From the NCBI RefSeq assembly GCF_000063445.1, contig NC_009464.1:1736001-1800000 (forward strand): DNA of 64,000 nt, written 5' to 3'. Shown here in pieces: positions 6,932 through 30,151 of the stretch; the stretch's first letter is position 1; each line of letters opens with the position of its first letter. Made by a program: the position numbers and the translations under genes. The notes beneath the pieces were generated by a model. The model saw only the letters and a list, made by a program, of their open reading frames with translations, ran no database searches and was not told the DNA's origin. Source of the stretch: Methanocella arvoryzae MRE50 (lineage in GTDB: Archaea > Halobacteriota > Methanocellia > Methanocellales > Methanocellaceae).

Positions 6932-6962
6932 GGCGGCTATGTTTCGGGAGGTCATGAACTCC

Positions 6963-7976: not shown

Positions 7977-8018
7977 ACGCCCAATAGCTATTAGCCCTTT
8001 TAGTGATAAGTACAGCCT

Positions 8019-8849
8019 ATGTACTGCGAGGTCGGAGACCTTGAGATATATTACGAAGAGTATGGCGAGGGCACCCCAGTAGTGATGATCCACGGCTACG
8101 GCATCGATCACCACGTGATGACCGGGTGCATGGAGCCGGTTTTCTTAAAAAGGAAAGGGTACCGCCGCATTTACCTCGACCTGCCGGGCATGGGGCGGAC
8201 CAGAGCCCCCGGCCACCCCATGAACTCCGACCAGATACTGGATGCAGTCGCGGGCTTCTGCGAGAAAACCGTGCCCGGCGAGCCGTTCCTGGTCGCGGGA
8301 GAATCCTACGGAGGCTACCTGGCACGGGGCCTGGTCTACAAGATCCCCCACCGGCTCTCCGGGGTGCTGCTGATCTGCCCGGTCATCGTCGCCGAGAAGG
8401 CGAAGAGGACGCTCCCCGGCAGGAGCGTGTTCGCCAGGGACGAGGCCCTCCTGAAAAGCATCGAGCCGGAGGCGAGAGGCCTGTTCGAGCGCATGCTGGT
8501 ACTGCAGGACAGCAGGCGATGGGAGAGATTCCAGCAGGATATCCTGCCCGGCGTCAGGCTGAGAGACGAGGACTTCGTCAGAGATCTGATGAAAAACGGG
8601 TACCCGTTTACCTTCGACGTAGACAGGCTGGAAAGGTCGTTCGACAGGCCGTCGCTCCTGCTGGCCGGGCGACAGGATGCCTCAGTCGGGTACAAGGACA
8701 TGCTGCAGATCGCGGACAACTACCCCCGGGGCAGCGTGGTGGTGCTGGACCGGGCAGGCCACGGGCTCGAAGTAGAGCAGCAGCCGGTTTTCGAGTGCCT
8801 GGTCAACGAGTGGCTCGACCGGGTGCGAGGCCATGAAAGCTCACATTAA
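8019..8849 (+). CDS. Alpha/beta hydrolase
   Basis: A 276-residue alpha/beta-hydrolase fold protein. MIHGYGIDHHV is the oxyanion-hole HG segment, and GESYGG (about 94-99) holds the nucleophile serine. GRQDASVG (about 228-235) supplies the acid, and AGHGLE (about 251-256) the base histidine. The family includes esterases, lyases and proline-iminopeptidase-like enzymes; the substrate is unknown. No signal peptide, so cytoplasmic. It stands alone between the radical SAM gene and the kinase. Confidence 0.88.
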   Translation: MYCEVGDLEIYYEEYGEGTPVVMIHGYGIDHHVMTGCMEPVFLKRKGYRRIYLDLPGMGRTRAPGHPMNSDQILDAVAGFCEKTVPGEPFLVAGESYGGYLARGLVYKIPHRLSGVLLICPVIVAEKAKRTLPGRSVFARDEALLKSIEPEARGLFERMLVLQDSRRWERFQQDILPGVRLRDEDFVRDLMKNGYPFTFDVDRLERSFDRPSLLLAGRQDASVGYKDMLQIADNYPRGSVVVLDRAGHGLEVEQQPVFECLVNEWLDRVRGHESSH

Positions 8850-8987
8850 CCGTTTTTCCGGCATTTTCGCCGCAATTTCACTGCCAAATCTAATCAGCGC
8901 GTACAGAAAAGTGAAACTACGAATTTTGACATCGACAGCGCACATAGTGCCGGAAGATGGCGAGAGGCAGGGCGAATAGAGATAGAT

Positions 8988-10973
8988 ATGGACGGCCGTT
9001 CGGAAGGGTCTGGCGATAAGAAAAACGGATACCAGCCAGACGAGGATATGTTCCGCTTCATGATCGAGAACTCGGGGGACATCCTCTGGACCATAGACCT
9101 GACCGGCCGGTGGCAGTTCATGACCAGCAACGTCGAGAAGGCCATCCACATCAAAGCCAGCGAGATCATCGGAAAGATGGTATGGGACTTCGTCGCGCCG
9201 GAGTACGTGGGCATCCTGAAAGATATGCTGAAGCGGCGGCTGGCCGGAGAGGACATGCAGGCATACGAGGTGGTGGTTTTAGACCGGGACGGGAAGCGTG
9301 TCCCATTCGAAGTAAAGACTTCTCCCATCGTGGACAAGAACGGGAAAATCATCGGGATCCAGGGGGTATCCCGGGACATCAGCCAGCGGAAAAATGCGGA
9401 GGCTGCGCTGCGGGAGAGCGAAAAAAAGTTCCGCGACCTGGTGGAGAGCATCCACGACTGGGTATGGGAGGCGAACAGGAAAGTAGAATTCACTTATTCT
9501 AGCCCTCGAGTACTGGATTTACTGGGGTATGCCCCCCGGGAGATCATCGGCAGGCCCATGTGGGATTTCATGGAGCCTGCGGAAGCCAGGAGGATATCCG
9601 CCATACTTCAGAACCTGATCAGGCTGCACAAGCAGTACGACATAGCGGAGAAGACGATGCTTAGCAAGAAGGGCGACCCCGTTGCCATGGAAATGACGCT
9701 GACACTGACGTACGACGAAAAAGGGGACATCAAAGGCTTCAAGGGCATATGCAGGGATATCCGGGACCGCAAGCGGGCGGAAGAAGCGTTGAGGCGGGCG
9801 TACGGCGAGCTGGAAAAGCGGGTGCAGGAGCGCACCCGGGACCTGGCTCAGGCGAGAGGCACTCTCCAGGGGATCCTGGATACGGCCCCGATAGGCATCG
9901 TCGTCGCTAACGCCCCGGATGGCAACATCTCCTTCAGCTCGCCCGGGGCGGAAAAAATCTTCGCCGGAGAAGCCTCCGGCAACATCTATAACCCCATGAT
10001 CGAACAGCACCGGCTGCTGCGGACAGACGGCTCCCCGTTCACCCACAACGACCTGCCCTTCATGATCTCGCTTGAGCAGGGAAAACGCATCATCGACGCA
10101 GAGATGCAGTACATTAAGCAGGATGGCCGGACGATGAGCCTGCTGGTAAGCAGCGCCCCGATCCTCGACGAGAAAGGCAAGATACTCGCTGCAGTCGCCA
10201 CCATCGTCGACATCACCAGGCTGAAGTCGACGGAAAGAGAGCTGCGGGAAGCGAAGGCCCAGGCAGAACTGTACCTCGACCTGATGAGCCACGACATTAA
10301 CAATATGAACACCATGGCCATGGGCTACATCGACATGGCAAAGAGCAGGGTGGAAGCAGACAGAGAAACCGTGGCGCTGCTGGAAAAGTCGGGGGAGATG
10401 CTGGCGAGCAGCACCCAGCTCATCGACAACGTCAGGAAAATCCAGCAGGCCGAACAAAGGGGCCTGGAACCGCAGATCGTCGACCTCTGCGAGGTCATCG
10501 ACCGCGCGAAAAAGAGGTACTCCACCGGAAACATCACCATCACCGCCACCTACCCCGAAGGCCGGGCATGCATGGTGACCGCAAACCAGCTGATAGAGGA
10601 CGTCTTCACGAACCTGATAGACAACTCCATCAAGCATGCGACGCCCGGAAAGCCCGTGCACATCAACATCGTGGTGGCCGAAACAAAGCGGGCTGGCAGC
10701 AGATATTACAGAGTGACGGTCGAAGACGACGGCCCGGGAATCCCAGACGACGTGAAAGACAGGCTCTTCATAAGGTTCCAGCGGGGGAAAACGAAGGTGA
10801 CAGGCAGAGGGCTCGGGCTCTACCTGGTCAAAACCCTAGTCGAGGACTTCGGCGGGTGCGTCAGAGTAGAGGACAGGGTCAAAGGCAACTACCACGAAGG
10901 CACCCGGTTCATCGTGCTCCTGCCAGTCTCCGCCAGAGAACCGGAGAAAGGGACGGGAGCCTGCGCGGGATAA
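8988..10973 (+). CDS. Cytoplasmic PAS-PAS-PAS sensor histidine kinase
   Basis: 661 residues without a membrane segment, hence an intracellular sensor. Three PAS/PAC units lie at about 20-135, 140-260 and 290-405. Each of the first two ends in a PAC motif (GIQGVSRDISQRK, GFKGICRDIRDRK), and a coiled coil lies at about 262-290. The phosphoacceptor is H435 in LMSHDINNMN. ATP-binding motifs are NLIDNSIKHAT (about 542-552), EDDGPGIPDD and GRGLGLYLV. All catalytic elements look intact. No response regulator or HTH output gene is adjacent, so it is an orphan kinase. PAS domains suggest redox, light or ligand sensing; the signal is unknown. Confidence 0.92.
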   Translation: MDGRSEGSGDKKNGYQPDEDMFRFMIENSGDILWTIDLTGRWQFMTSNVEKAIHIKASEIIGKMVWDFVAPEYVGILKDMLKRRLAGEDMQAYEVVVLDRDGKRVPFEVKTSPIVDKNGKIIGIQGVSRDISQRKNAEAALRESEKKFRDLVESIHDWVWEANRKVEFTYSSPRVLDLLGYAPREIIGRPMWDFMEPAEARRISAILQNLIRLHKQYDIAEKTMLSKKGDPVAMEMTLTLTYDEKGDIKGFKGICRDIRDRKRAEEALRRAYGELEKRVQERTRDLAQARGTLQGILDTAPIGIVVANAPDGNISFSSPGAEKIFAGEASGNIYNPMIEQHRLLRTDGSPFTHNDLPFMISLEQGKRIIDAEMQYIKQDGRTMSLLVSSAPILDEKGKILAAVATIVDITRLKSTERELREAKAQAELYLDLMSHDINNMNTMAMGYIDMAKSRVEADRETVALLEKSGEMLASSTQLIDNVRKIQQAEQRGLEPQIVDLCEVIDRAKKRYSTGNITITATYPEGRACMVTANQLIEDVFTNLIDNSIKHATPGKPVHINIVVAETKRAGSRYYRVTVEDDGPGIPDDVKDRLFIRFQRGKTKVTGRGLGLYLVKTLVEDFGGCVRVEDRVKGNYHEGTRFIVLLPVSAREPEKGTGACAG

Positions 10974-11062
10974 ACGAGCGGACGCTGCCATCATATTGGC
11001 CGCCCGCCGCAAAGACTCCTGAATCCGGTTATAGTTTTTACTGTTACTTTTTGGATGTTCGC

Positions 11063-11330
11063 CATTCAGGCCCTCCCCGGCCTCCGATTCCTCACCGTAC
11101 TCCTCTCTGACCTCCCGACCTCTCTGACCTCTCCCCGAGATCGTTCTCTCTGATCTCCGGAGCCTCCGAAACCTACCTGTTGTCCGGTTTGCGCACACAT
11201 ACCTGGAAAACGGGGGGTTGGAGAGTGCCCGGAGGTCCGGGAGACTTTTTTCAAGCTGGGAGGTCAGGGAGGTCAGGAGGTCTGAGAGGAGGAAGGTGAG
11301 GGGACAGAGGATTGGAGAGGGAAAGGCGGC
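11063..11330. repeat. GACCTC/GAGGTC-type inverted repeat element
   Basis: A pyrimidine arm made of variants of CTCTGACCTCCCGACC (11063-11160) is followed by a purine arm made of variants of GGGAGGTCAGGGAGGTCAGG (11219-11330). Related arms occur at 43905-44137 and 60455-60572. Together with the palindrome at 11341-11380, it fills most of the gap 10974-11537. No reading frame here has credible coding character. Confidence 0.7.
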
Positions 11331-11340
11331 TGTCGGGAAT

Positions 11341-11380
11341 CGCCTTGAGAACGCCTGCCATGGCAGGCGTTCAAAAGGCG
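11341..11380. repeat. 40-base near-perfect palindrome
   Basis: CGCCTTGAGAACGCCTGCCA is followed directly by its reverse complement with two mismatches, centred at 11360/11361 with no loop. The inner 24 bases are perfect. It lies between the purine-rich repeat and the promoter region of the KGG gene. It could be a cruciform, a regulator site or a repeat-derived hairpin. Confidence 0.75.
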
Positions 11381-11537
11381 AATATCAAGGCACAGGAATT
11401 GTTCGAAATGTTTTAGAAAAGAATATACTTCGGCTGTTTTTCCCGGTATTCTTCATCGACACCCCAAATTTCTACTCTTTCGGATGCAGCGATTTATCAG
11501 TCCTACCCTCGTCTTAATTGATAGCTACGGTGATATT

Positions 11538-11837
11538 ATGGTGAAGAAGGAAGAAGAGAAGAAGGGCGGCATGTCCGTCCGCGAAGCAGGACACAAGGGC
11601 GGCGAGAAGACAGCAGAAACCCACGGCAGAGAATTCTACCAGGAGATAGGCGAAAAAGGCGGAGAGAGGACGGCAGAAACTCATGGCAAAGAGTTCTACC
11701 AGGAGATAGGCCACAAGGGCGGCGAGAAAGTAGCCGAAGAGAAAGGCCCCGAGTTCTACTCGAAGATCGGCCACAAAGGCGGCCAGAAGGTCAAAGACCT
11801 CATAGAGAAGGGAGAAGAGGCCGAAGAGAAAAAGTGA
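11538..11837 (+). CDS. KGG-repeat stress protein (GsiB/Em-like)
   Basis: A 99-residue, very hydrophilic protein made of four imperfect units with the pattern GHKGGEKTAETHGREFYQEI. The KGG signature appears as GHKGGEK, GEKGGER, GHKGGEK and GHKGGQK. KGG proteins are general-stress or desiccation proteins in bacteria and are related to plant Em/LEA proteins. They are intrinsically disordered and thought to protect the cell during water loss. ATG 11538 was chosen because it begins the repeat-type composition (VKKEEEKKGG) and has GGTGAT at 11529-11534. The open frame upstream to 11484 is hydrophobic and unrelated. Confidence 0.88.
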   Translation: MVKKEEEKKGGMSVREAGHKGGEKTAETHGREFYQEIGEKGGERTAETHGKEFYQEIGHKGGEKVAEEKGPEFYSKIGHKGGQKVKDLIEKGEEAEEKK

Positions 11838-11962
11838 GCCTGCCGAAGCCCCGCAGGATAAGCCCTTTCATACGGTAAACCGCCTTTCCTAGAACGATGT
11901 GGAAGCCGGGCGGAAAAGCCAGCCTGAAAGCCTGCGCAGGCTTTAGAAAGAACCCTCGCAGA

Positions 11963-13285
11963 CTATTTTCCATTTTCCCTGCTCTCGGGCGGCGGTGGCG
12001 GGGTTACCAGGACCTTGTCGACGCGCATACCGTCCATATCCACGACCTCATAGGTATAGCCGTCCACAGTGAACTTATTCCCCACAGCCGGAATGCGGTG
12101 CAGCCGGGTCATGACAAAGCCGCCCAGCGTCTGGAACATGCCGCTCTCCTCTTCGGGCAGGCTGTCGATGTCCAGCTCGTTCATGAACTCGTCGATGGGC
12201 AGCATCCCGTCCACCAGCCACGAGCCGTCATCCCGCTGGACAACCTTGGGGCCCTCGATCTCGGAGACCTCGCCGACCACGGACTCCATGATATCATGGA
12301 TGGTGACCAGCCCCTGCAACCCGCCGTACTCGTCGATGATCAGGGCCATGTTCTTGCCCGACTTCTTGAACAGCTCCAGCGCCTTCAGCGCGGGCATGCT
12401 CTCCGGGATAAAGAGAGGCTCCTTCATGCTCGCCTTCAAATCCAGCGGCTGGTTAGCCATGTACCTGCTCAGGAGGTCTTTCGCATACACAATGCCGAGC
12501 ACCTCGTCAAGGCTGCCCTCGCAGACAGGGAAGATCGAGTGCCCGCTCTCCTGGATCTTCTGTCGGATCTCCTCCACCGTATCATCCGTGTACAGGGCGG
12601 TCACGTCAGTCCGGGGCACCATCATGGCACTGATCCTCCGCTCCCCGAGCCGGAACACGCTCTCCACCATGTCGCTCTCCGCCTCCTCGAAGACGCCCGC
12701 CTTGGCGCCCTGGTCGATCAGGACCTTGATCTCCTCCTCAGTCACCGGAGGCTCCGCGGATGGCTTGACATGCAGCACCCGCAGCGACAGATCAGTCGAA
12801 AAGCTCAGCAGCCTGACGACGGGCATAGCCAGCATGGACAGGAAGCGCATCGGCCCCGCGATGATCAGGGCGATCCTCTCCGCGTTGCCCAGCCCGATCC
12901 GCTTGGGCACCAGCTCCCCGATCACGATGGTCAGGAAGGTGATTATGAGGACTACGGAGACAATGGCGATGGACCCTGCGTAAGGCGCGAGGGCCGGAAC
13001 GGCGCTGATATAGGGTACGAAGTCCTCCGCAATGGTAGCGCCTCCGAAAGCGCCCGCGAGGACGCCGATCAGCGTGATGCCGACCTGGATAGTCGACAGG
13101 AAGTCGCCGGGAGCCATGGCCAGGTCAAGAGCTACTTTAGCGTTCTTATCGCCCTCGTTGGCAAGCTGCTGCAGCCGGGCCTTACGGCTGGACACAATGG
13201 CGATCTCAGCCATCGCAAAAAGGCCGTTAAGAATGATCAGAAATACGACTATGACCGCTTCGATCAATAAATTGGACATTGACAA
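11963..13285 (-). CDS. CNNM/CorC-family membrane protein with CBS domains
   Basis: A 440-residue protein. An N-terminal DUF21/CNNM membrane domain (about 1-190, with FLIILNGLFAMAEIAIVSSRKARL and GELVPKRIGL) is followed by a CBS pair (about 205-330, MVPRTDVTAL ... YAKDLLSRY and MALIIDEYGGLQGLVTIHDIME). A CorC/HlyC C-terminal domain (about 345-430) completes it. The family handles divalent cations, mainly Mg2+ or Co2+ efflux, and CBS domains sense adenyl nucleotides. The start is ATG 13285 or 13279. An AT-rich TATA-like box at 13306-13315 is about 25 bases upstream, suggesting a nearly leaderless mRNA. Confidence 0.92.
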   Translation of the reverse strand: MSMSNLLIEAVIVVFLIILNGLFAMAEIAIVSSRKARLQQLANEGDKNAKVALDLAMAPGDFLSTIQVGITLIGVLAGAFGGATIAEDFVPYISAVPALAPYAGSIAIVSVVLIITFLTIVIGELVPKRIGLGNAERIALIIAGPMRFLSMLAMPVVRLLSFSTDLSLRVLHVKPSAEPPVTEEEIKVLIDQGAKAGVFEEAESDMVESVFRLGERRISAMMVPRTDVTALYTDDTVEEIRQKIQESGHSIFPVCEGSLDEVLGIVYAKDLLSRYMANQPLDLKASMKEPLFIPESMPALKALELFKKSGKNMALIIDEYGGLQGLVTIHDIMESVVGEVSEIEGPKVVQRDDGSWLVDGMLPIDEFMNELDIDSLPEEESGMFQTLGGFVMTRLHRIPAVGNKFTVDGYTYEVVDMDGMRVDKVLVTPPPPPESRENGK

Positions 13286-13556
13286 GTCTCTCCGGGACAG
13301 CCCAGATTAAATTCTTAGCGCGGCGGAATACGCCTGCAATACACAATTCTATTTAGTCTGTGGCCATCCTAAACTTTGCTATCATGCGTGCGCCGACCAG
13401 AGTATTATCGGGGCGCTGCCTGATAAAACAATAACATAGGATTAGGACATGGTTTATAAATTTTTTGTATCAATATAAATTGGCATCCAGCAAGACATAG
13501 TACACTTCCGTGGCTGACAGGCATAATAAATTGTATATTGATTGCCATGGGCAGGG
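13286..13556. other. Intergenic region beyond the distal end of the CRISPR array
   Basis: The first 40 bases hold the promoter of the CNNM/CorC gene. The rest (to 13556) is AT-rich with TTTATAAATTTTTTG at about 13451-13465. No reading frame or further repeat copies are seen. Since the array is transcribed towards this region, the T-rich stretch could stop crRNA precursor transcription. Confidence 0.4.
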
Positions 13557-16500
13557 TTGTTCACCCCCACATCCGTGGGGACCTATGATATTATCTTTTC
13601 ATAGAGCGCCTACTGACGGTTCACCCCCACGCCTGTGGGGACTTTTCGCAACAATCCCTATATATCCACGCCAACGACGGTTCACCCCCACGCCTGTGGG
13701 GACTTTGCCACATCGGTGCCTGCGATGTTCGGCTCGATCGGTTCACCCCCACGCCTGTGGGGACTTTATAGTTATCGCGAGGGGATCCGGAGCGGCCGGC
13801 GGTTCACCCCCACGCCTGTGGGGACTTTGCCCTCTTGAGGGTGGCAACGCCCCTGGATATCGGTTCACCCCCACGCCTGTGGGGACTTTGGCGAACGTAT
13901 GAACCTCATAGCTGACTGTCCCGGTTCACCCCCACGCCTGTGGGGACTTTCCGCCAGTTCTCCATGACGGCCCTGATCTTCGCGGTTCACCCCCACGCCT
14001 GTGGGGACTTTGGAAGTAGGCCCCGATACGATTGAGCAGCTTACGCGGTTCACCCCCACGCCTGTGGGGACTTTATTAGACGACGTACCGGGATTTGGTT
14101 GCGTTACGGTTCACCCCCACGCCTGTGGGGACTTTTGAGGCTGTCATACGAGAACGAAGAGTCGACATCGGTTCACCCCCACGCCTGTGGGGACTTTTAT
14201 CTGGGTCTTCATGTTGAACCGTGCGCCATCGGTTCACCCCCACGCCTGTGGGGACTTTCAGGCGTCGAACTCTGCCTTCTCGTCTTTGGCCGGTTCACCC
14301 CCACGCCTGTGGGGACTTTCTATCTCTTTTGAAAGATCGTAGTTGCTCATTCGGTTCACCCCCACGCCTGTGGGGACTTTTTGAATTGCTGGCCGTCCGA
14401 GATTGGGGTGATCGGTTCACCCCCACGCCTGTGGGGACTTTGCACTTGCGGGAATGTTCGGAGCTGCCGCCCTCGGTTCACCCCCACGCCTGTGGGGACT
14501 TTCAACCGAAATCATAAACGCACAGATTGCGAACCGGTTCACCCCCACGCCTGTGGGGACTTTATTACAGCCCCGATCCGAGTCTTACACTCGTACGGTT
14601 CACCCCCACGCCTGTGGGGACTTTCGCGTCGCCTACCTTCGTAAGGACAGGGACAACGGTTCACCCCCACGCCTGTGGGGACTTTTCGTCTGGTCCGCTA
14701 AGTCCTACCGCATTAACCGGTTCACCCCCACGCCTGTGGGGACTTTGCGACGTCTGCCCTAAAAATTCTCCGGTACAACGGTTCACCCCCACGCCTGTGG
14801 GGACTTTGCGGTCGGGGCGTCGTGGGTGTGGGGCGTCGCCGGTTCACCCCCACGCCTGTGGGGACTTTTTTTCACGGAAGCGCTACCTGTCCAGGCGTAC
14901 GGTTCACCCCCACGCCTGTGGGGACTTTTCATAGGCTCCCCCGTACATCGGGAAATGGTACGGTTCACCCCCACGCCTGTGGGGACTTTATAGGGTATCA
15001 AGTAAAAGTTTTAGCATATGCCGGTTCACCCCCACGCCTGTGGGGACTTTTCAGATTAGAAGGCTGTAAGTCAGTCTTCTTTCGGTTCACCCCCACGCCT
15101 GTGGGGACTTTGGGGTTTTCATTATCACCCACGCCTGCTCCATCGGTTCACCCCCACGCCTGTGGGGACTTTGACACAATGGACATATTAACTTACCATC
15201 ATGTCGGTTCACCCCCACGCCTGTGGGGACTTTGGCACAACCACCAGTTATCGATGAAGACAAACGGTTCACCCCCACGCCTGTGGGGACTTTGGCATGT
15301 TGACCGTGAACGATACGTGGTCCGGCGGTTCACCCCCACGCCTGTGGGGACTTTCTGCGCCTGCACAGCTGCAGGTGTAATCATCGCGGTTCACCCCCAC
15401 GCCTGTGGGGACTTTTTGTCGTGCCAGGCTGGATGATGCTTGCCGGTCGGTTCACCCCCACGCCTGTGGGGACTTTTCATTATATAACTGGAAAATTTTT
15501 GTGTTAAACGGTTCACCCCCACGCCTGTGGGGACTTTGGCAGGATAGATTCAATTGATAGTATGCATCCCGGTTCACCCCCACGCCTGTGGGGACTTTCT
15601 GTACCTCCTTGTTGTCATGATCTGCTGCTTCGGTTCACCCCCACGCCTGTGGGGACTTTACGGGCTTCGATTTCCAGGTACTTTTGATACCCGGTTCACC
15701 CCCACGCCTGTGGGGACTTTGAGAATAGTTAAAGAATACCCAATAATAGCGGCCGGTTCACCCCCACGCCTGTGGGGACTTTTTTGGGCATTTATCTATA
15801 CACTTGCCGCCATTCGGTTCACCCCCACGCCTGTGGGGACTTTTTCCTCCGCTTCAACACTCTTAAGATAGCTTTCGGTTCACCCCCACGCCTGTGGGGA
15901 CTTTCGCTGACGGGGCAGTATCCCACGCAAGAGCGCCGGTTCACCCCCACGCCTGTGGGGACTTTCGCTGCCAGCAGCCTATTAGTCAGCTCTTGCTCGG
16001 TTCACCCCCACGCCTGTGGGGACTTTGGGACGCTTAACCTCAATACCCACAAATACACCCGGTTCACCCCCACGCCTGTGGGGACTTTGCGTAGTCGGTA
16101 GGAAGGTCTATCGCAAAGAACGGTTCACCCCCACGCCTGTGGGGACTTTATTTGAAGCATCGTAGTTTCTGCCGGGGCCAGCGGTTCACCCCCACGCCTG
16201 TGGGGACTTTGAATGGGCAGAGCAGCAGTCATTCTTTGATGACGGTTCACCCCCACGCCTGTGGGGACTTTATTATGAGTCAGCATGGCGACATGACCAG
16301 GAACGGTTCACCCCCACGCCTGTGGGGACTTTGGAAAGGTCACCAATAGCAACGGACAGGCCACCGGTTCACCCCCACGCCTGTGGGGACTTTCACCACT
16401 GGCTTAAGCCAGTTCTTTTGTGTTCCGGTTCACCCCCACGCCTGTGGGGACTTTTAACAGAATTGCAATGGATACACGGTTCATCAACGGTTCACCCCCA

Positions 16501-19500
16501 CGCCTGTGGGGACTTTTTGTTTGTACAGGTGTGCTTCACGCTTAACGCGGTTCACCCCCACGCCTGTGGGGACTTTCATCTTATGAGCCTGATCGAATAA
16601 CTGGCTTGCGGTTCACCCCCACGCCTGTGGGGACTTTTCTCTAGGTTGAATCTTCCACTGTGCAACTTTCGGTTCACCCCCACGCCTGTGGGGACTTTAC
16701 TATCTTCATTTGTTCCTGAAGCTTTTCAAGCGGTTCACCCCCACGCCTGTGGGGACTTTGGGCAAAGGACGGCACTAACGTTCTCGCTCACGGCGGTTCA
16801 CCCCCACGCCTGTGGGGACTTTTTTTTATCAGTAGTGATCCTGCGGATATCGTTCGGTTCACCCCCACGCCTGTGGGGACTTTGTGATGGTCGTCTCCCG
16901 GTTCCTGCGCTACTATCGGTTCACCCCCACGCCTGTGGGGACTTTGTTTTGGAGCATTTAAAATAATCCTGTGTAGTCGGTTCACCCCCACGCCTGTGGG
17001 GACTTTTCCGGCTTCTTCCATAGCTTTAACACTCTGATCGGTTCACCCCCACGCCTGTGGGGACTTTTCAGCGATCTCTCCCCGCTTGATCTTAGTGACC
17101 GGTTCACCCCCACGCCTGTGGGGACTTTTGGGCTTCGGCTCTGGCCGTCCTCTCCATTCTCGGTTCACCCCCACGCCTGTGGGGACTTTTGTATGTATGA
17201 TACTAACACCAACCGATGCCGCGGTTCACCCCCACGCCTGTGGGGACTTTGTCCCTACACTATTTCCGTTAATGTCTCGGATCGGTTCACCCCCACGCCT
17301 GTGGGGACTTTGCGCTGGCTTGATACCTCAATGCCATCAAGGTCGGTTCACCCCCACGCCTGTGGGGACTTTTTCTTACGTGCAGCCTTAGTCTTAGCTC
17401 TCATCGGTTCACCCCCACGCCTGTGGGGACTTTATTTAATTTTTAAATCTATTAGTGGGTGCTGTCCGGTTCACCCCCACGCCTGTGGGGACTTTTATGC
17501 CGGACTGCATCTTAAGCACAGGGTATTCGGTTCACCCCCACGCCTGTGGGGACTTTAAAGCCGTCTTTGGTAAACTGGTTTGGTGTTACGGTTCACCCCC
17601 ACGCCTGTGGGGACTTTGTTTAATAGGAGGCAAACACGTTTTTTAGCTACGGTTCACCCCCACGCCTGTGGGGACTTTTCTGCGACCGGCGAGACGGATA
17701 GACGGCTTAACGGTTCACCCCCACGCCTGTGGGGACTTTGCCGCTGCGTGAATCTGCTCCTTAGTAACTTCCGGTTCACCCCCACGCCTGTGGGGACTTT
17801 TGTTTCCTTACCAGCATGTTTTCGGCGGCATACGGTTCACCCCCACGCCTGTGGGGACTTTGAATACGCAAAAAATTAATTTTTATCTTGTATCGGTTCA
17901 CCCCCACGCCTGTGGGGACTTTTCGATTACTGTGTCCCTTAACTCGTACCAACTCGGTTCACCCCCACGCCTGTGGGGACTTTGTATGGGAAAGGCAATT
18001 TCACGAACACGCTAACGGTTCACCCCCACGCCTGTGGGGACTTTCAAGGCTCCGCAGTGCTCCGCTGCGAGACATGCGGTTCACCCCCACGCCTGTGGGG
18101 ACTTTGCGTCAGGTATGGCCAGATTTGTGACTTGTGTAGGTTCACCCCCACGCCTGTGGGGACTTTGCTACCCCAAGATACGCTATTGAATTATAATACG
18201 GTTCACCCCCACGCCTGTGGGGACTTTGTGACAGTAACATCGTCTAACCCGCTATTGTACGGTTCACCCCCACGCCTGTGGGGACTTTGTCCAAGCATAT
18301 ACTATTTCTCCTATCGCTTGCGGTTCACCCCCACGCCTGTGGGGACTTTCCGCTTATCCACTATCGTCTCGGTGACGTCCTCGGTTCACCCCCACGCCTG
18401 TGGGGACTTTGTTCAGATATTTCAGGATGTTGTCGAACGATTCGGTTCACCCCCACGCCTGTGGGGACTTTGGTGATGCCTACGATGCCGGGGCCGATTG
18501 CCGCGGTTCACCCCCACGCCTGTGGGGACTTTCAATATTGTACATCTTCATATCAATCACCATTCGGTTCACCCCCACGCCTGTGGGGACTTTTAACTAC
18601 AAATTATACTTGCGTTAAGGTACACCGGTTCACCCCCACGCCTGTGGGGACTTTGCTCATACACTCGTTCCATCTCGGCCATACCGTCTGGTTCACCCCC
18701 ACGCCTGTGGGGACTTTGATTCTACGTAGGTCGTACTCCAATCAAATAACGGTTCACCCCCACGCCTGTGGGGACTTTTCGCAGTCTTATTACTGCTCCT
18801 GACGGATATACGGTTCACCCCCACGCCTGTGGGGACTTTCCAATAGCCTGATTTTGCAAAGTCTTAATGGCCGGTTCACCCCCACGCCTGTGGGGACTTT
18901 GCGCAGGCCCGAAGTTGCAGCGCTCGGCCCCCCGGTTCACCCCCACGCCTGTGGGGACTTTGACACGCTTCTGCACCGTATCCACGGGGATACCGGTTCA
19001 CCCCCACGCCTGTGGGGACTTTTGCTCAGGCCCAAGAGTGGTAGCAACTATAAGCGGTTCACCCCCACGCCTGTGGGGACTTTTGATTGCACCAAGTAAA
19101 ACACCAATAAGTAAACGGTTCACCCCCACGCCTGTGGGGACTTTCTTATGAAGCTAATCTCATGGCTTTTCAGGAACGGTTCACCCCCACGCCTGTGGGG
19201 ACTTTATACTAATGGAAATCAGGTAATTGCACAGTATCGGTTCACCCCCACGCCTGTGGGGACTTTATCTCCGCCACGATATCACCACTACAGACGACCG
19301 GTTCACCCCCACGCCTGTGGGGACTTTGGATCTAAAAGAGCTACACGGTAAGTGCCCGGCGGTTCACCCCCACGCCTGTGGGGACTTTGAGGGCCTTATT
19401 AATGTAGATGCCCTGAACGCCGGTTCACCCCCACGCCTGTGGGGACTTTGCCGTCTCGTATTAACTCCTGTATGTACCAGCTCGGTTCACCCCCACGCCT

Positions 19501-20549
19501 GTGGGGACTTTTATGATTTTGCCTCTTTCAATATCTTCAACGACGGTTCACCCCCACGCCTGTGGGGACTTTTGGGTGGGGAACAGGTAACCAAAACTCA
19601 ACATCGGTTCACCCCCACGCCTGTGGGGACTTTGATCCGGCCAGACAAAACACTTTGGGGTAAAACGGTTCACCCCCACGCCTGTGGGGACTTTCAGTTT
19701 GCTCTATGATATAATCGGCCTGTTCTCGGTTCACCCCCACGCCTGTGGGGACTTTCATTGCGTATCTCATCGGATGCGGTCAGGCTTCGGTTCACCCCCA
19801 CGCCTGTGGGGACTTTGTCTAATATTATTTCAAAATTATTTCTCTTAACGGTTCACCCCCACGCCTGTGGGGACTTTATCGGGGCCGTGGGGTAGATTCA
19901 TCCCACCGGCGGTTCACCCCCACGCCTGTGGGGACTTTGGCCTTAGCTCCCGCCATGAGCTTCTTGAGGTCGGTTCACCCCCACGCCTGTGGGGACTTTT
20001 TAGTGGCGTGAGCCTCTTCTCCCTGAGCTGCCGGTTCACCCCCACGCCTGTGGGGACTTTGCACAGTACGTGAAGACCCCGGGTGGGGTCTACGGTTCAC
20101 CCCCACGCCTGTGGGGACTTTCACGGCGCCGGGGACGGGGGCACTACGTTCAACCGGTTCACCCCCACGCCTGTGGGGACTTTCTTATACGGTGTGCCGT
20201 CAGGTCTAACTCCGTCGGTTCACCCCCACGCCTGTGGGGACTTTGGCTTTGATTATCGTACCATCCGCCGCCCATTCGGTTCACCCCCACGCCTGTGGGG
20301 ACTTTCCCTCGCGCTCACTCTGAAGAATGCTCTGTAACGGTTCACCCCCACGCCTGTGGGGACTTTGCACCGGCAGTATTCGGTTATGATTTGCTCTGCG
20401 GTTCACCCCCACGCCTGTGGGGACTTTTGATAGTGGTTATGATCCTATCGGATTGATTACGGTTCACCCCCACGCCTGTGGGGACTTTAATCTGTTTAAT
20501 GGTGACCGGGTTACTGATCACGGTTCACCCCCACGCCTGTGGGGACTTT
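13557..20549 (-). CRISPR. Type I-E CRISPR array, 115 repeats and 114 spacers
   Basis: Repeat starts counted by eye: one degenerate copy at 13557, then 114 copies from 13617 to 20521. The period is 61 bases (60-63), with 29-base repeats and spacers of about 32. On the transcribed (minus) strand the repeat has the hairpin CCCCAC-AGGC-GTGGGG and ends in GTGAACCG. That end corresponds to the eight-base 5' handle left by Cas6e in type I-E. The degenerate copy at the low-coordinate end marks the old, leader-distal side, and cas2 lies next to the young end. Variant copies are at 18138 (A for C at the first plus-strand base) and 18688 (T for G at the second). Spacers look unrelated to each other. Confidence 0.98.
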
Positions 20550-20576
20550 ACTTGAAAAAGAGCTTCGTTTTAATTA
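20550..20576 (-). promoter_or_regulatory. Very short leader between cas2 and the CRISPR array
   Basis: Only 27 AT-rich bases separate the cas2 stop codon (20579-20577) from the first repeat. No room exists for a separate archaeal promoter (TATA box plus start site). Array transcription must therefore start inside cas2 or continue from the cas operon, and any integration signals must be very compact or lie in cas2 coding DNA. Confidence 0.6.
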
Positions 20577-20867
20577 TTAAGGCTTTTCTTTAGTCATCAC
20601 TAAAGATAGCCCTTCGAAGTCTACTATTGTTCTGGTTGTATCTCCGTAGCTTTCTATCTTGTAGCCTTGTTCGTTGTTGTACGAATAGGCCATTGTGCAA
20701 CCTCCTTTTTTGATGTTTTTAATGATTTTGCCCCATAACTTGTTTCTCACCATTCCGGATAGTTTGCCGATGAATACGCCGGCCTTGGGTTCGATCATCC
20801 AGCGGGTCAGTTCTCCTCTGAGAGATGGGGAGACTGATTCTACGATAAATACTGAAAAAGATGCCAT
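20577..20867 (-). CDS. cas2: Cas2 (type I-E)
   Basis: 96 residues, close to the usual 94-97 of the I-E subtype. It is the structural partner of Cas1 in the spacer integrase. The pattern SLRGELTRWMIEPKAGVFIGKLSGMVRNKLWGKI matches the Cas2e fold, and the C-terminal strand DFEGLSLVM is the one that contacts Cas1. The gene starts six bases after cas1 ends. An in-frame internal ATG (20693) is preceded by a perfect GGAGG at 20705-20701 with seven-base spacing, which could yield a 39-residue C-terminal product. This is the last gene of the operon, immediately before the array. Confidence 0.95.
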   Translation of the reverse strand: MASFSVFIVESVSPSLRGELTRWMIEPKAGVFIGKLSGMVRNKLWGKIIKNIKKGGCTMAYSYNNEQGYKIESYGDTTRTIVDFEGLSLVMTKEKP

Positions 20868-20873
20868 ATAAGA

Positions 20874-21815
20874 TCACACGGCTTCGTTAGAGTAGTTCGT
20901 GCCTCCGGGCACCTGCCCTTTGTCGGGGTCCCAGACTTTTCCGGGCACTGTGAGGTCGGAGTCGAAATCGTCGAAGATCAGGTCGGAGGGTATCGGCACA
21001 TCGAGGGCTTTCTCGATATCGGGCACGATCTTTGACAGTAAGTCCAGGTCATTGAATTTGTCCCGGCAGGCGAGTCGGACCTTTCGCTCCAGGCTATCGT
21101 TGCCGAGTTCGGCTACTGCCCGGAAGGAAAGGGGGATCGTGATCGAGGCTTTGTAGAGGTCGGCGATGTCGTAGACGAAGGAGAGTTGTTTGCCGGTGTG
21201 GATGAAGCCCAGCGCTGTAGAGTACCCTACCGATATTATCGCTGCGCTGCAGATGCCGTAGAGGCAGGAATTTGCTACTGATAATGCCCGGTTAACCGGG
21301 TCTGCGTTCATCCAGTTGGAGGGGTCGAAGTTGCGGCCATTCCAGGGGATTCCCGTTTCTGCGCTGGCCAGGGCGTAGGTTTGCCTGACCCGGTAGCCTT
21401 CCATGCCTCGGAGCTGCTGGATGCTCAGGTTTTCAGGGATTTCCTTGAAACGCATTCGGTACATCTTTTCCACTACTTTCAGCCGTAGCGCCGGGTGGCT
21501 GACTAGAAGAGCCTGTTTGAGCAGTTTGGAAGAGTGGCGGGTTTCGCCGAAGCCCTGAGCGTAGAAGCGGATGCCGCCTTCGCCGCACCAGGCGGCGAGG
21601 CAGCCGTTGTCCGCCAGTGTTTTTACCGCTTCGTGGGTGATGCTGGTGCCCGGGCCCAGCATCAGCAAGGCGAGGCTGGCGCAGGGTACTTTGGCCTTGC
21701 CTCGCTCGTCGTGGATAGCTACAGCTTTGTCCTCCCTGTCGATCTTGCAGTGCTCGACGTACAGGTAGCTCCACCCGTCTTCGACCCGGGGGAGTTCGTG
21801 CAGGTCTTTGGGCAT
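20874..21815 (-). CDS. cas1: Cas1 integrase (type I-E)
   Basis: A 313-residue Cas1, the metal-dependent integrase that inserts prespacers at the leader end. Predicted active-site residues are E139 (LRGMEGYR), H206 (GFIHTG) and D219 (YDIADLYK); this pattern matches the E. coli enzyme. The N-terminal beta domain starts at LPRVEDGWSYLYVEHCKI. It lies four bases after casE and six before cas2, in one operon. The enzyme looks complete, so the array may still acquire spacers. Confidence 0.96.
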   Translation of the reverse strand: MPKDLHELPRVEDGWSYLYVEHCKIDREDKAVAIHDERGKAKVPCASLALLMLGPGTSITHEAVKTLADNGCLAAWCGEGGIRFYAQGFGETRHSSKLLKQALLVSHPALRLKVVEKMYRMRFKEIPENLSIQQLRGMEGYRVRQTYALASAETGIPWNGRNFDPSNWMNADPVNRALSVANSCLYGICSAAIISVGYSTALGFIHTGKQLSFVYDIADLYKASITIPLSFRAVAELGNDSLERKVRLACRDKFNDLDLLSKIVPDIEKALDVPIPSDLIFDDFDSDLTVPGKVWDPDKGQVPGGTNYSNEAV

Positions 21816-21819
21816 TGGC

Positions 21820-22572
21820 TCACCTTGCCGGAGCTAAGGATAGGAGGCCGAAGCCATAGGCTTTGCCGCTGCCGATGCCGGATTTGAGGGTTTCGAGGAA
21901 CTTTTCTGCATTTGTCACTTTCAGGGTGCCTTCGAAAAGGACCGAGCCGAAGGTTAATCTATTTTCCCGGGCGTTTTTCTGGACTTTTGCTTTTATTCCA
22001 GTGTCGAAGGTGTATATTTTCTGATGGCCTTCTTCACTGATGAGCACATCGGAGAGTTCGCTAAACCTCTTCGTGGACATGAGTTCGAAGCCTCCTGCCG
22101 CGCCTTTTCTTTTCAGCCAGAGGATCTGGTCGCTCTCGTTTCTGATCGGCACCCGCCGCCCGTTATTTTTAGGCTTGCCGGCTTTGATGTCCTCAATCCG
22201 GGACGTGCCGATCTTTTTCGTAGGATTGGCTCGAAGACGGAAAGCATAGACATCGCCGGCCTTTATTTTCCCGTACTGTTCGTCTATAGCCTTACAGGCT
22301 GGATTTTCCGTGCCCGTATTTTCGAGTAGATAGCCTTCTGGCAGCTTTGACCAGTCGGGCTTTTCCTGCGACTGGACCAGTAGTACGATCGCGCCGCTTC
22401 TGGGGTGGATGTCGATCCGGTGGAGAACGCCGAAGGTTTCCCTTGCTTCGCCTCCTTTTCCATTAAGGTCCGGAAAGCCCCCCAGAATAGTCCGATGAAG
22501 TTCGTGGCAGTCAGCGAGGTCTCTTCTGACAGCCCTTGTTCTCGGGTTCAGGATCAGTCTTGATAAATACAT
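21820..22572 (-). CDS. casE: Cas6e (CasE) crRNA endoribonuclease
   Basis: A 250-residue Cas6e, which cuts the precursor at the 3' base of each repeat hairpin and stays in the Cascade complex. The N-terminus MYLSRLILNP is typical. H26 (in HELHRTILGGFPD) sits at the position of the catalytic histidine in the Thermus enzyme. The glycine-rich loop GIGSGKAYGFGLLSL near the C-terminus binds RNA. The start codon overlaps the end of casD, indicating translational coupling. Confidence 0.95.
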   Translation of the reverse strand: MYLSRLILNPRTRAVRRDLADCHELHRTILGGFPDLNGKGGEARETFGVLHRIDIHPRSGAIVLLVQSQEKPDWSKLPEGYLLENTGTENPACKAIDEQYGKIKAGDVYAFRLRANPTKKIGTSRIEDIKAGKPKNNGRRVPIRNESDQILWLKRKGAAGGFELMSTKRFSELSDVLISEEGHQKIYTFDTGIKAKVQKNARENRLTFGSVLFEGTLKVTNAEKFLETLKSGIGSGKAYGFGLLSLAPAR

Positions 22573-23255
22573 TAAAGGCCCTCTCCTTCTGCTTGAAGTT
22601 TTACAGTGCTCATCCGGACGTGCCTGATGCCGTACATTCTGGCCGGGCTTTTCGTCATCCGATCAGTCCTCTGGTAAGGTCCGGAGAGGTCTTCGACTAT
22701 ACATTTTAATTCTTTGGGGTGCGCTTTGCGGGCTTCCATAGTCCCGGAACTCCACGGGTGTCGGCTCAGTGCATCGTCTATCGAAGCATAGTCAGTGGTC
22801 AGGGTTTCGAAGACGGGGCGGGTCGGTGGGCAGGATTTTCTTCCCAGATAGATTGGCCATACAGGGTCTTTCAGAGCGTTGCTTATTCTGGTAAGCAGTT
22901 CTCCCGGGCCTTCGAGTACTACGAGGAACGCTGCATCCTGGAGATAGTCTCTGAAGGATACAATCGTCGTTTCGCGGAGCTTACCTTCGGCGGTCCGAAG
23001 CTCTCCGCTGACCGTGTGGTAATCCCTGGCGATTTCGCCGGGGCACTCCACACGAATGCCTATCCGAAGTTGTGAGTCCAGTTCGTCAGTCAGCCGCGGG
23101 TCCTTTCGGGCATATCCGAGAGCGCAGCCGAGCAGTCCGATGATGCCGGACTTGGTAGGCTCGTCCCCGGTATCTCTGATATCCCACCTGGCTTTCAGCC
23201 CCCATGACTGCATTGGCCCCTCCAGCCTCAACAGCAGGAGCAATGGGTTGTCCAT
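22572..23255 (-). CDS. casD: Cas5e (CasD) Cascade subunit
   Basis: 227 residues. Cas5 caps the 5' handle of the crRNA in Cascade. The N-terminus LLLLRLEGPMQSWG is the signature of the I-E Cas5 family. RTAEGKLRETTIVSFRDYLQDAAFLVVLEG and YLGRKSCPPTRPVF follow in the expected order. It begins 14 bases after casC and overlaps casE by one base. Confidence 0.95.
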   Translation of the reverse strand: MDNPLLLLLRLEGPMQSWGLKARWDIRDTGDEPTKSGIIGLLGCALGYARKDPRLTDELDSQLRIGIRVECPGEIARDYHTVSGELRTAEGKLRETTIVSFRDYLQDAAFLVVLEGPGELLTRISNALKDPVWPIYLGRKSCPPTRPVFETLTTDYASIDDALSRHPWSSGTMEARKAHPKELKCIVEDLSGPYQRTDRMTKSPARMYGIRHVRMSTVKLQAEGEGL

Positions 23256-23269
23256 TCAGTCACCACCGT

Positions 23270-24445
23270 TTAGAGGGCACTGTTTATACCGGATATTAGA
23301 TCGTTGATCGTCTGGCAGGTTTCCGTTCCGGCGAGCGCCTTATCGCCCGCAACGAACCAGAGCCGCCTGGTCGATCTCAGGTTGAACTTCTCAGTCTGGA
23401 GCTCGACATGTTTCACGAATTTGTTCAGGGTATCTTCCACCATGTCGACACCGTTTCTCGGGCGGGCCGGATCAACGAACGCGTTAGCGTAGCTTACTGG
23501 CGTCTTTGTTGGCCGAATTTCCACAAGGACGGCGCTGGGGAGCTGATGCGCGGCGAAGCTGTTCTGCTTTCCACTGGGCGTCGTGTAGATGGCCGCTTTT
23601 AGAAAGGCGGTGATAGTGATCGCGGCGACTTTTTTCGCGTTTTCCAGCGATTCAGCATAGGCTTTTTTATCGGCTTCCGTGGCATTATCTCCGGGTTTCA
23701 AGCCTGCGAGATTCTGTATCAGGGCATCGTAATCCAGTGAGAAGTACTTGTAGTAGCAGGCAGAGTTGAACTGGACGTCGCCGATCATATCTGCTCCGGG
23801 GCCGTCGGAAGACTTCTGAAGGTCATCCACGGCAGTGAAGTAATCAAACTCGTGGTCCATTTTGTTCGTGGAGATCGCATGGGCCACCTGCATGGATGCC
23901 TCGATGTCCATGAATGCATCCGATGTGATCATCCGGCCGAAAAGGGCCAGGTCCGGTGTTACAGGCCGCCATCCCTTGAGTTCTGCGGCTTTTTGAAGAT
24001 CGGCGGCTTTCATGTCCTTGAATGCCTTAGGGTTTCCGGCTTTCAGGATGGCATCCTTCATGACCGATGCTACAGCGTCGACGTCAGACTGGGTTATGAA
24101 CATTGTCTGGGCCGTGTTCAGGTCTTCCTCGCGTTCTTTACCGTCCTTGGTTCCGAAACCGGTGGCCTTTTCTGCCGCTATGGCCGCCATCTTTTCGTCT
24201 ATTCCATCACTGATGAGCTTGGCCTTGACGAGTTCAGGAAGCCTGCGTGTCCTGTTCGCCAGTTCGATTCCCTTCATCTCTTCCTTGAATATCGGGGACA
24301 TCCTGATGCTGCGCTTGATGCTCTGGCTGGATATCCTCGATCGCCTGATGCCGCCGAACATGCAGTCTTTCGGGCTTCCTGTGTCATCCCTGTTCAGATT
24401 GCAGGGAGCGTGGTTCTGGATCATGTGTATCTCGATTAATTTCAT
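23270..24445 (-). CDS. casC: Cas7e (CasC) Cascade backbone
   Basis: 391 residues. Cas7 forms the six-subunit backbone that holds the crRNA. The N-terminal block IHMIQNHAPCNLNRDDTGSPKDCMFGG followed by RISSQSIKRSIR is a hallmark of the I-E subtype. It is slightly longer than the E. coli protein (about 363), with an insertion around residues 240-265. It overlaps casB by four bases. Confidence 0.95.
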   Translation of the reverse strand: MKLIEIHMIQNHAPCNLNRDDTGSPKDCMFGGIRRSRISSQSIKRSIRMSPIFKEEMKGIELANRTRRLPELVKAKLISDGIDEKMAAIAAEKATGFGTKDGKEREEDLNTAQTMFITQSDVDAVASVMKDAILKAGNPKAFKDMKAADLQKAAELKGWRPVTPDLALFGRMITSDAFMDIEASMQVAHAISTNKMDHEFDYFTAVDDLQKSSDGPGADMIGDVQFNSACYYKYFSLDYDALIQNLAGLKPGDNATEADKKAYAESLENAKKVAAITITAFLKAAIYTTPSGKQNSFAAHQLPSAVLVEIRPTKTPVSYANAFVDPARPRNGVDMVEDTLNKFVKHVELQTEKFNLRSTRRLWFVAGDKALAGTETCQTINDLISGINSAL

Positions 24446-25032
24446 GCTTTTGCCTCCTCTTTTGACTCTTTAGTTTCAGATTCTACCGGCTTTCCGTAGC
24501 CGAAATATGATCTGGCCCATCTCTTCTGTACTCTCTTTTCCGGGTAGCCCCAGTATTTCAGGTCCTGCAGGAGCCTGTACCAGTCTACCCCGATCTCGTG
24601 GCCGCTGGCCAGTTTCACGCATTGCCGCAGCCGATAGGCGAGTTCTCCCCCGCCGGGTTTTATCCCGTCGACGATGTTGAACTCGCTGTCGAGCAGAGTT
24701 GACACTCTCTGGTCGATGCTTTCCGAGTTTGAGCTCTCTCTTACAAGCTTCATCGTCTGTCCGAAGTCCCCTGTAAATCGGTACTTATTATGCCCGTACA
24801 GAGTGGCTATCAGGAAGTAGATCTCCTCGTAGGGGGAATCTGAAATGCCGTAAGGTAGCAGGCTATAGAAAGTTTTCATCGCGCCGCGAGACTCTGCTAT
24901 CGTGTTGCCGGCGTTTCGCTTCAGGATGGCCATACCGCCACGATCGGATTCGGCCATCTTTGCTAAGTTCGCCAGGAACTCCTCATCCTTTTTACTCTTC
25001 TGGTGCTCTTTGTTTTCGTTGGGAGCGGTCAT
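24442..25032 (-). CDS. casB: Cse2 (CasB, Cas11e) small subunit
   Basis: 196 residues, mostly helical and basic. The dimer of this subunit stabilises the R-loop in Cascade. The segment ESDRGGMAILKRNAGNTIAESRG is the conserved positively charged face. WARSYFGYGK is the typical end of the core, followed by a charged tail. It overlaps casA and casC by four bases at each end, as expected for coupled translation. Confidence 0.93.
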   Translation of the reverse strand: MTAPNENKEHQKSKKDEEFLANLAKMAESDRGGMAILKRNAGNTIAESRGAMKTFYSLLPYGISDSPYEEIYFLIATLYGHNKYRFTGDFGQTMKLVRESSNSESIDQRVSTLLDSEFNIVDGIKPGGGELAYRLRQCVKLASGHEIGVDWYRLLQDLKYWGYPEKRVQKRWARSYFGYGKPVESETKESKEEAKA

Positions 25033-26630
25033 TTATCCTCCTTATTTTTCTGTCGATTCTTTTTCTTCGCCTGTATGGAATCAGGGTACAGCGCAAATCT
25101 GATGCCTGAACTGTACTCGTTCATCGCCTTGACCTGGCGGCGTAGCGAATCGCCGTCAGTATCCAGCGGTCCGAGGCCTTTATCGAGCGCGTTCTTTCCA
25201 GTATCGTCCAGTATTTTCTTCCACTGTTCCATGAGCTTAGTGTATGCGTCGAGATCATTTTCGTCCTGTTGAGACAGCGTTTTTAAGAAAATGCTTTCGA
25301 ACTGGCCTTTCAGATGGCTCCAGTAGGAAGACTGAACGCTCAGAATGAGATTGTCGAATCCACTCTCGTTAGATTTTGCATTTCTCGGGTAGGCTTTTTT
25401 CATGGCTTTCCGGAGTATGTAAGCTACGCTATCTGCGAGGTCCATCGCGTCCTGTATTTGTCGGCCGGAGTTTGCCTTTTTCAAGATTTCTATGGGAAGA
25501 GCTAGTTTTTCATGGTACCATTCGTAAATCTTCATTTTTCCATCTGTGCGGATACCATAAACTTCCAGTCTTAAAGGCTCGCTGCGTTTGATCATACCAT
25601 TGCTGACCATCTGTTTGTACTGAGTAACTACCGCCGGCCGATCGAAGCTTACTTTTCCGTCTTTGCCCGAGTAGTCCCCGTGTTGCAGGAGCATCAACGG
25701 CCCAATGTCTCGCCACAGCGCCTTGTTCTCGTCCGGCCTGAGCGGCCTGATGGCATCCTTAGTCTTTTTATATGCTACCTGAGGATCGACCCACAGGCCT
25801 GGCTCGGGCGATTTTTGTCCCGGGTAATAATGCATGTGGCTGACCGTGTCAACGTCTTTTTCTCCAGTATACGTGCATGTGCCCTTGCCGTTTCCCGGGA
25901 TAAGCTGAATGATCCTGGGCCTCCAGGTCAGACCTTCGACGATGGAAAAGGTTTTAGGTTCATCGCCGGGATCGATTCGTTTGTCGTTCCTCCAGGCTAC
26001 AGGTGAATCTCCGATAGGTTTGACAGTCATTGGTATCTGGCAGACGTTGTAGAGGAGAGTCTCGAACAGGTTGTTGCCTTTTACAAGAACGTACCAAGGT
26101 GGGCTGCCGTTAATGCTTGGGGACAGGCCAGCGCCGCCGGCTGTCATGAACGGGGCTATAGTCACCAGCCCTTTGGCGCACTGCTCGAAAGAGAAGGAGT
26201 TCTCATCCCAGCGTCCATGGTGAAAATGGGAGACGTTAGTGCCTGCCGGCAGATGCTGCATCAACCTGGAGATCGGCTCGGGAGGTTTCTTTATTACCCC
26301 CGTTATTGCCTGCTGTAAGAACGGGTATTTTTCGTCGAACAGATCAAACCGGTCTCTCCACCTGGCGGCATATTCGTCCAGCGCTGTGGGGTCTAACCGC
26401 TTACGGTCGAGGAGATCGGCCAGATCCTCCAGTCCCTGAGGCTGGAAGACATCTGTTATAAAAGCGATCAGCAGGCGGTATATTCCGAATTCTACCGGAG
26501 GAGCCGGATCAAAAATACTGTCGATCTTATGTGCGTTTTTCAAAGTCGCCAGTATTCCCTCCTGCACCGGGTTTCCGGACAGGTCGATGGATGTGATCCA
26601 CGGTTCTGTTAACAAGTTATATGAGACCAA
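25029..26630 (-). CDS. casA: Cse1 (CasA, Cas8e) large subunit
   Basis: This subunit recognises the PAM and recruits Cas3. SYNLLTEPWITSIDLSGNPVQEGILATLKNAHKI is the standard start of the family, and HFHHGRWDENSFSFEQCAKGLV is typical of the core. TTG 26630 is proposed as start: GAGGTG, which overlaps the cas3 stop, ends five bases before it, and the resulting N-terminus MVSYNLLTEPW matches family length (533 aa). An ATG ten codons upstream (26660) would overlap cas3 and is the alternative. Confidence 0.93.
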   Translation of the reverse strand: MVSYNLLTEPWITSIDLSGNPVQEGILATLKNAHKIDSIFDPAPPVEFGIYRLLIAFITDVFQPQGLEDLADLLDRKRLDPTALDEYAARWRDRFDLFDEKYPFLQQAITGVIKKPPEPISRLMQHLPAGTNVSHFHHGRWDENSFSFEQCAKGLVTIAPFMTAGGAGLSPSINGSPPWYVLVKGNNLFETLLYNVCQIPMTVKPIGDSPVAWRNDKRIDPGDEPKTFSIVEGLTWRPRIIQLIPGNGKGTCTYTGEKDVDTVSHMHYYPGQKSPEPGLWVDPQVAYKKTKDAIRPLRPDENKALWRDIGPLMLLQHGDYSGKDGKVSFDRPAVVTQYKQMVSNGMIKRSEPLRLEVYGIRTDGKMKIYEWYHEKLALPIEILKKANSGRQIQDAMDLADSVAYILRKAMKKAYPRNAKSNESGFDNLILSVQSSYWSHLKGQFESIFLKTLSQQDENDLDAYTKLMEQWKKILDDTGKNALDKGLGPLDTDGDSLRRQVKAMNEYSSGIRFALYPDSIQAKKKNRQKNKEDK

Positions 26631-26634
26631 ATGT

Positions 26635-29304: not shown

Positions 29305-29400
29305 ATCCCCTCAACTCTACCTCTTACACCAGACTATATGTCAACAAATATTGACATGTGACATGACAAGTAGCCATTAGTTAATACTTGTATTTAATAG
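29305..29400 (-). promoter_or_regulatory. Promoter and candidate operator of the cas operon
   Basis: The inverted repeat TGTCAA (29339-29344) / TTGACA (29351-29356) with a six-base AT spacer is followed by direct copies of TGACATG (29352-29358, 29359-29365). Read on the minus strand, an AT-rich box (CATATAG, around 29335) lies about 30 bases before the cas3 start, so a bound protein would cover the basal promoter. A purine-rich ribosome site (GAGGGG) sits just before the ATG. The rest of the gap to 29619 is AT-rich and otherwise featureless. Confidence 0.5.
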
Positions 29401-29619
29401 TATTGTAAGTGATATAGGACATAGCTATTATTAAGCTATCATAAGTGCAGCCTGAAAGTTTCCTGGCTATTGAAAGAATTCTGCTACTGCGAAAGTGAAT
29501 GGATACAGCAGAGGCAGATTTGATTAAAAATCTACTATTAACTGATTGTGATAGAACCCTTATATAACACCAAGATAAAACCACTTGTATAGAACTCGTA
29601 TAGAAAAGGAGTGACACGA

Positions 29620-30111: not shown

Positions 30112-30151
30112 GCTAAAGCTAAAAGTTGAAGAATCAAAGAATTAGTTTTAG

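What the first reader, a model, noticed from the sequence alone, without database searches (positions are those of the whole stretch)
13557..20549. Giant type I-E CRISPR array (115 repeats, 114 spacers) with complete cas operon in an archaeal chromosome
The 29-base repeat is almost invariant over nearly 7 kb; one degenerate repeat marks the distal end, and all eight cas genes have intact motifs. Type I-E is mainly bacterial, so this looks like a transferred but active system. The large spacer set is a record of mobile elements of this lineage.
Basis: partly seen in the sequence, partly recalled or inferred. Interest (0 to 1): 0.6.

Follow-up and report, generated by a model that had tools for sequence, protein, structure and literature searches.

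The report
Known archaeal type I-E CRISPR locus
A methane-producing archaeon carries a complete bacterial-style CRISPR immune system with 114 stored spacers, acquired from bacteria and sitting in a roughly 22-kb insertion beside a tRNA gene; the system was already on record and is not unusual in size or kind.

Summary
The genome is almost certainly Methanocella arvoryzae MRE50, whose type I-E system is already in the literature (PMC12195208). "Giant" is overstated: six of the 80 related loci fetched have at least 104 repeats, one of them archaeal (118). Transfer from bacteria is supported: Cas1, Cas3, Cas7 and Cas8e nest among bacterial sequences, apart from the I-E systems of other methanogens, and a single archaeal Cas1 clade is rejected. 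The locus lies in a ~22-kb stretch between a radical-SAM gene and tRNA-Thr(GGT); in a related genus the same neighbours are ~0.7 kb apart, and that genus carries its own I-E cassette beside a different tRNA (Arg-TCG). Function as standard I-E immunity is inferred. No spacer target was found in phages, plasmids, the host genome, 392 other archaeal genomes or seven IMG/VR scans, so no PAM could be derived. A minor oddity: only 27 nt separate the cas2 stop from the first repeat, so the leader is tiny or runs into cas2.

The parts
13557..20549 (-). CRISPR array, 115 repeats of 29 nt and 114 spacers; leader end at 20549
   Evidence: direct count; repeat families
13557..13585 (-). degenerate terminal repeat (7 mismatches), leader-distal end
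20550..20576 (-). 27-nt interval between cas2 stop codon and first repeat (leader; TATA-like TAATTAAAA)
   Evidence: promoter role inferred
20577..20867 (-). cas2e
   Evidence: PF09707, TIGR01873
20874..21815 (-). cas1e; E139, H206, D216, D219 kept
   Evidence: TIGR03638 373 bits, cut-off 216; alignment; PDB 6kdv
21820..22572 (-). cas6e; H26 kept
   Evidence: PF08798, TIGR01907; aligned with 1wj9
22572..23255 (-). cas5e
   Evidence: PF09704, TIGR01868
23270..24445 (-). cas7e
   Evidence: PF09344, TIGR01869
24442..25032 (-). cse2 (cas11e)
   Evidence: PF09485, TIGR02548
25029..26660 (-). cas8e (cse1)
   Evidence: PF09481, TIGR02547
26635..29304 (-). cas3, HD nuclease and helicase, motifs intact
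   Evidence: PF18019, PF22590, TIGR01587; aligned with 4q2c
30151..30224 (-). tRNA-Thr(GGT), 846 bp upstream of cas3, right edge of the inserted stretch
   Evidence: ARAGORN
7977..30150 (.). about 22-kb stretch absent from the matching site of G003, holding the CRISPR-Cas locus; exact ends not defined
   Evidence: synteny with G003 and G001

Best explanation
This is a complete, probably working type I-E CRISPR-Cas immune system in the methanogen Methanocella arvoryzae. An ancestor gained it from bacteria, separately from the I-E systems of other methanogens, and it lies in an insertion next to a tRNA-Thr gene. By homology, Cas1-Cas2 add spacers at the cas2-side end, Cas6e cuts the transcript, Cascade (Cas8e-Cse2-Cas7-Cas5-Cas6e) carries the guide RNA, and Cas3 degrades matching DNA. 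Shown here: anatomy, intact motifs, bacterial ancestry and an empty site in relatives. Inferred: expression, spacer acquisition, interference and the identity of the targets.
For: Repeat and spacer count; family models for all eight genes; catalytic residues; Cas1, Cas7, Cas8e and Cas3 trees nested in bacteria; AU test rejecting one archaeal Cas1 clade, p 3.5e-81; empty site in G003 and no cas genes at the site in G001; no self-target; spacer GC 48% against 57% in the window; published listing of a I-E system for M. arvoryzae MRE50 (PMC12195208).
Against: No spacer target found, so immunity against any element is not shown. No expression data. The insertion has no detected att repeats.
Confidence: 0.93

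Rival explanations
1. The system is a fossil: the genes are intact but no longer expressed or acquiring spacers, and the array is an old archive.
For: No spacer matched any sequence searched; the leader is very short.
Against: All genes open and motifs intact; 112 of 115 repeats identical; the same short leader occurs in G003 with its own array, so it is a shared trait rather than decay. Missing targets are expected: a published search linked Methanocellaceae to IMG/VR v4 only twice (PMC12143468).
Confidence: 0.1
2. Type I-E was inherited vertically in methanogens from a common archaeal ancestor, not acquired separately from bacteria.
For: Several methanogen families carry I-E systems. Cas divergence between the window and G003 (57-86% identity) brackets that of the housekeeping gene hypF (75%), so inheritance within Methanocellaceae is possible.
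Against: Cas1, Cas7, Cas8e and Cas3 each separate Methanocella from other archaea; one archaeal Cas1 clade is rejected. The locus is at non-matching sites in the two genera, and two other Methanocellaceae genomes lack Cas1.
Confidence: 0.03

Closest known systems
Type I-E CRISPR-Cas of Methanocella arvoryzae MRE50 as listed in PMC12195208
   Same: Very probably the same locus: I-E with cas1-3, cas5-7, cse1-2
   Different: The parts of the paper read here give no array map, ancestry or insertion site for it
Bacterial type I-E systems, model E. coli K-12 and Thermus thermophilus
   Same: Same eight genes, 29-nt repeat with the I-E hairpin, 61-nt period, close structural matches
   Different: Archaeal host, 27-nt interval between cas2 and array, tRNA-linked location
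Type I-E systems of other methanogens (Methanosarcinaceae, Methanocalculus, Methanoregulaceae)
   Same: Archaeal hosts and the same subtype
   Different: Separate Cas1 clade (about 45% identity to the window), intergenic leaders of 84-135 nt

Membership tests
CRISPR-Cas type I-E | Cas8e (Cse1) and Cse2 present | tested here: met
   TIGR02547 130 bits, cut-off 70; TIGR02548 58 bits, cut-off 28.5
CRISPR-Cas type I-E | Cas5e, Cas6e, Cas7e and Cas3 with HD and helicase domains | tested here: met
   type-specific models above cut-off; HD and helicase domains in one Cas3
CRISPR-Cas type I-E | Cas1e and Cas2e adaptation module, no Cas4 in the operon | tested here: met
   TIGR03638, TIGR01873; every operon gene assigned to another family
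CRISPR-Cas type I-E | about 29-nt repeat with short hairpin and about 32-nt spacers | tested here: met
   29-nt repeat with CCCCAC/GTGGGG arms, 99 of 114 spacers 32 nt
CRISPR-Cas type I-E | leader between cas2 and array | tested here: inconclusive
   only 27 nt between cas2 stop and repeat; same in G003
CRISPR-Cas type I-E | PAM beside targets | tested here: inconclusive
   no protospacer found
CRISPR-Cas type I-E | crRNA-guided DNA interference | not testable with these tools
   needs an experiment

The most novel reading that the evidence does not exclude
Archaeal type I-E cassettes travel as tRNA-associated insertions. The window (Thr), G003 (Arg) and Methanohalophilus (Thr, two genomes) each have a same-strand tRNA 0.4-1.3 kb upstream of cas3, against 0 of 46 bacterial loci. 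In Methanocellaceae the leader has shrunk to about 27 nt, so the array promoter and the integration signal overlap the end of cas2.
Probability: 0.25. Interest if true: 0.4.

Novelty: already known. Interest (0 to 1): 0.2.

Why it matters
It documents a bacterial immune system that entered methanogens at least twice and kept all its genes. The 114 spacers are a ready resource for finding viruses of rice-paddy methanogens, which are still very poorly sampled. As a CRISPR system it is ordinary.

Tried and rejected
Spacer searches came up empty: phages (best E 2), plasmids (the significant matches are to unannotated repetitive stretches that look like other I-E arrays), own genome (best other E 0.13), 4 Methanocellales and 393 archaeal genomes (the significant matches look like other CRISPR arrays), and seven seed-pattern scans of IMG/VR, each for one spacer (chance-level only; best match not selected by a pattern 25 of 32). 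I looked for proviruses in Methanocellales as a lead to target viruses; one terminase and one portal model found none. I looked for copies of the tRNA 3' end as att sites in the window and in G003: none. A second cas1 in the genome belongs to what is almost certainly the published casposon MetArv-C1, not to a second CRISPR system.

Full report
The array runs from 13557 to 20549 and has 115 repeats and 114 different spacers. Of the repeats, 112 are identical, two differ at one base, and the one at 13557 differs at seven. Array and operon read on the minus strand.

The operon is complete. Cas3, Cas8e, Cse2, Cas7e, Cas5e, Cas6e, Cas1e and Cas2e exceed curated cut-offs of Pfam or NCBIfam models. 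Cas1 keeps E139, H206, D216 and D219, which correspond to E141, H208, D218 and D221 named for E. coli Cas1 in PMC4046053. Cas3 keeps the HD, Walker A, DEVH and SAT motifs in the alignment with 4q2c. Cas6e keeps H26 in the alignment with Thermus 1wj9. Motifs of the other five proteins were judged by model score alone.

The genome is one contig of 3,179,916 bases. By size (from memory), by a I-E system listed for Methanocella arvoryzae MRE50 (PMC12195208) and by a casposon region with an insertion sequence, as described for MetArv-C1 (PMC4046053), it is almost certainly that strain. The system is therefore already on record.

The size is not exceptional. Counted the same way within at most 10 kb of flank, related loci have 122 (L024), 104 (L025), 119 (L026), 156 (L037), 118 (L097, Methanosarcina) and 119 (L098) repeats, against 114 for the window by that count. 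PMC12195208 reports archaeal arrays of up to 221 spacers.

The transfer claim is supported. In a Cas1 tree of 84 sequences the window and G003 sit in a clade otherwise bacterial (Acidobacteriota, Chloroflexota, Hydrogenedentota and others), while I-E Cas1 of Methanosarcinaceae, Methanoregulaceae and Methanocalculus form another group. The one bacterial-labelled row inside that group (Sumerlaeota L071) is identical to Methanosalsum and looks like a binning error. Forcing all archaeal sequences together is rejected, AU p 3.5e-81. Cas8e groups with Armatimonadota L033 and L040 (SH-aLRT 99). Cas7 and Cas3 group with L033, L040 and L042 (97 and 100). The donor lineage cannot be named, because these bacteria come from several phyla. 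I-E is rare in the phylum: 4 of 393 genomes matched Cas8e, although that single-sequence search finds only part of the diversity.

The site shows an insertion. In G003 the radical-SAM gene orthologous to window 6912-7976 ends about 0.72 kb from tRNA-Thr and the peroxiredoxin-hypF block. G001 has the same tRNA-Thr and hypF block near orthologues of window 2.8-6.4 kb, without cas genes between. In the window about 22 kb lies between them, holding the CRISPR locus, a hydrolase, a PAS histidine kinase and ORFs of unknown function. Whether all of this came in at once is not known. G003 has its own I-E cassette on another contig, next to tRNA-Arg(TCG). Same-strand tRNAs within 1.5 kb upstream of cas3 occur in 4 of 12 archaeal loci and 0 of 46 bacterial ones (Fisher p 0.0012). 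That count includes one Methanohalophilus locus twice (L021 and L076) and leaves out G003, whose fetched flank was too short for the test. The test was made after the pattern was seen, so it is a lead only.

The leader is short. Only 27 nt separate the cas2 stop from the first repeat, and G003 is nearly the same, with 20 of 30 bases identical from the stop codon to the repeat. Relatives L023, L027 and L036 have 7-10 nt. An archaeal TATA-like stretch (TAATAATTAAAA) lies where a transcription start at the first repeat would need it. This is inference.

The spacers remain unassigned. Phages, plasmids, the genome itself, four Methanocellales and 393 archaeal genomes gave only apparent other arrays or chance matches. 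Seven seed scans of IMG/VR, each for one spacer, gave chance-level matches. This agrees with a published search in which Methanocellaceae yielded only 2 linkages to IMG/VR v4 (PMC12143468). Spacer GC is 48% against 57% in the window, consistent with foreign DNA. The last spacer base is A or C in 79 of 114 (p 1e-4 for that column, uncorrected), which could reflect spacer selection by Cas1-Cas2. No PAM could be derived.

Verdict: a real, complete, previously listed type I-E system of bacterial ancestry in a methanogen; ordinary as a system, with a mildly interesting tRNA-linked location and compressed leader.

Noticed in passing
L233:7946-14160 (own genome, about 2,699,945-2,706,159): A stand-alone Cas1 closest to the solved Methanosarcina casposase 6opm, beside a weakly PolB-like protein and a transposase, with no CRISPR array within 20 kb: almost certainly the published casposon MetArv-C1.
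   Followed up: yes
window 30151-30224; L020:19556-19630; L076:1757-1830; L084:1082-1153: Archaeal I-E cassettes repeatedly have a same-strand tRNA gene 0.4-1.3 kb upstream of cas3 (Thr, Arg, Thr, Thr); none of 46 bacterial loci does. No att-like repeats found.
   Followed up: partly
window 20550-20576; L020 10257-10283; L023; L027; L036: Very short interval (7-27 nt) between cas2 stop and first repeat in this I-E clade, so leader signals may lie inside cas2.
   Followed up: partly
window 11897-13270: 457-aa ORF beside the distal end of the array with no Pfam, NCBIfam, PADLOC or PHROGs match; an overlapping 440-aa ORF on the other strand (11963-13285) was not examined.
   Followed up: partly
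window 29611-30108: 166-aa ORF between cas3 and tRNA-Thr with a weak zinc-ribbon match and a weak match to phage family phrog_10675; possible remnant of the inserted element.
   Followed up: partly
L020 9738-9981: The G003 array contains two spacers present twice, from a duplicated 122-nt two-unit block.
   Followed up: no
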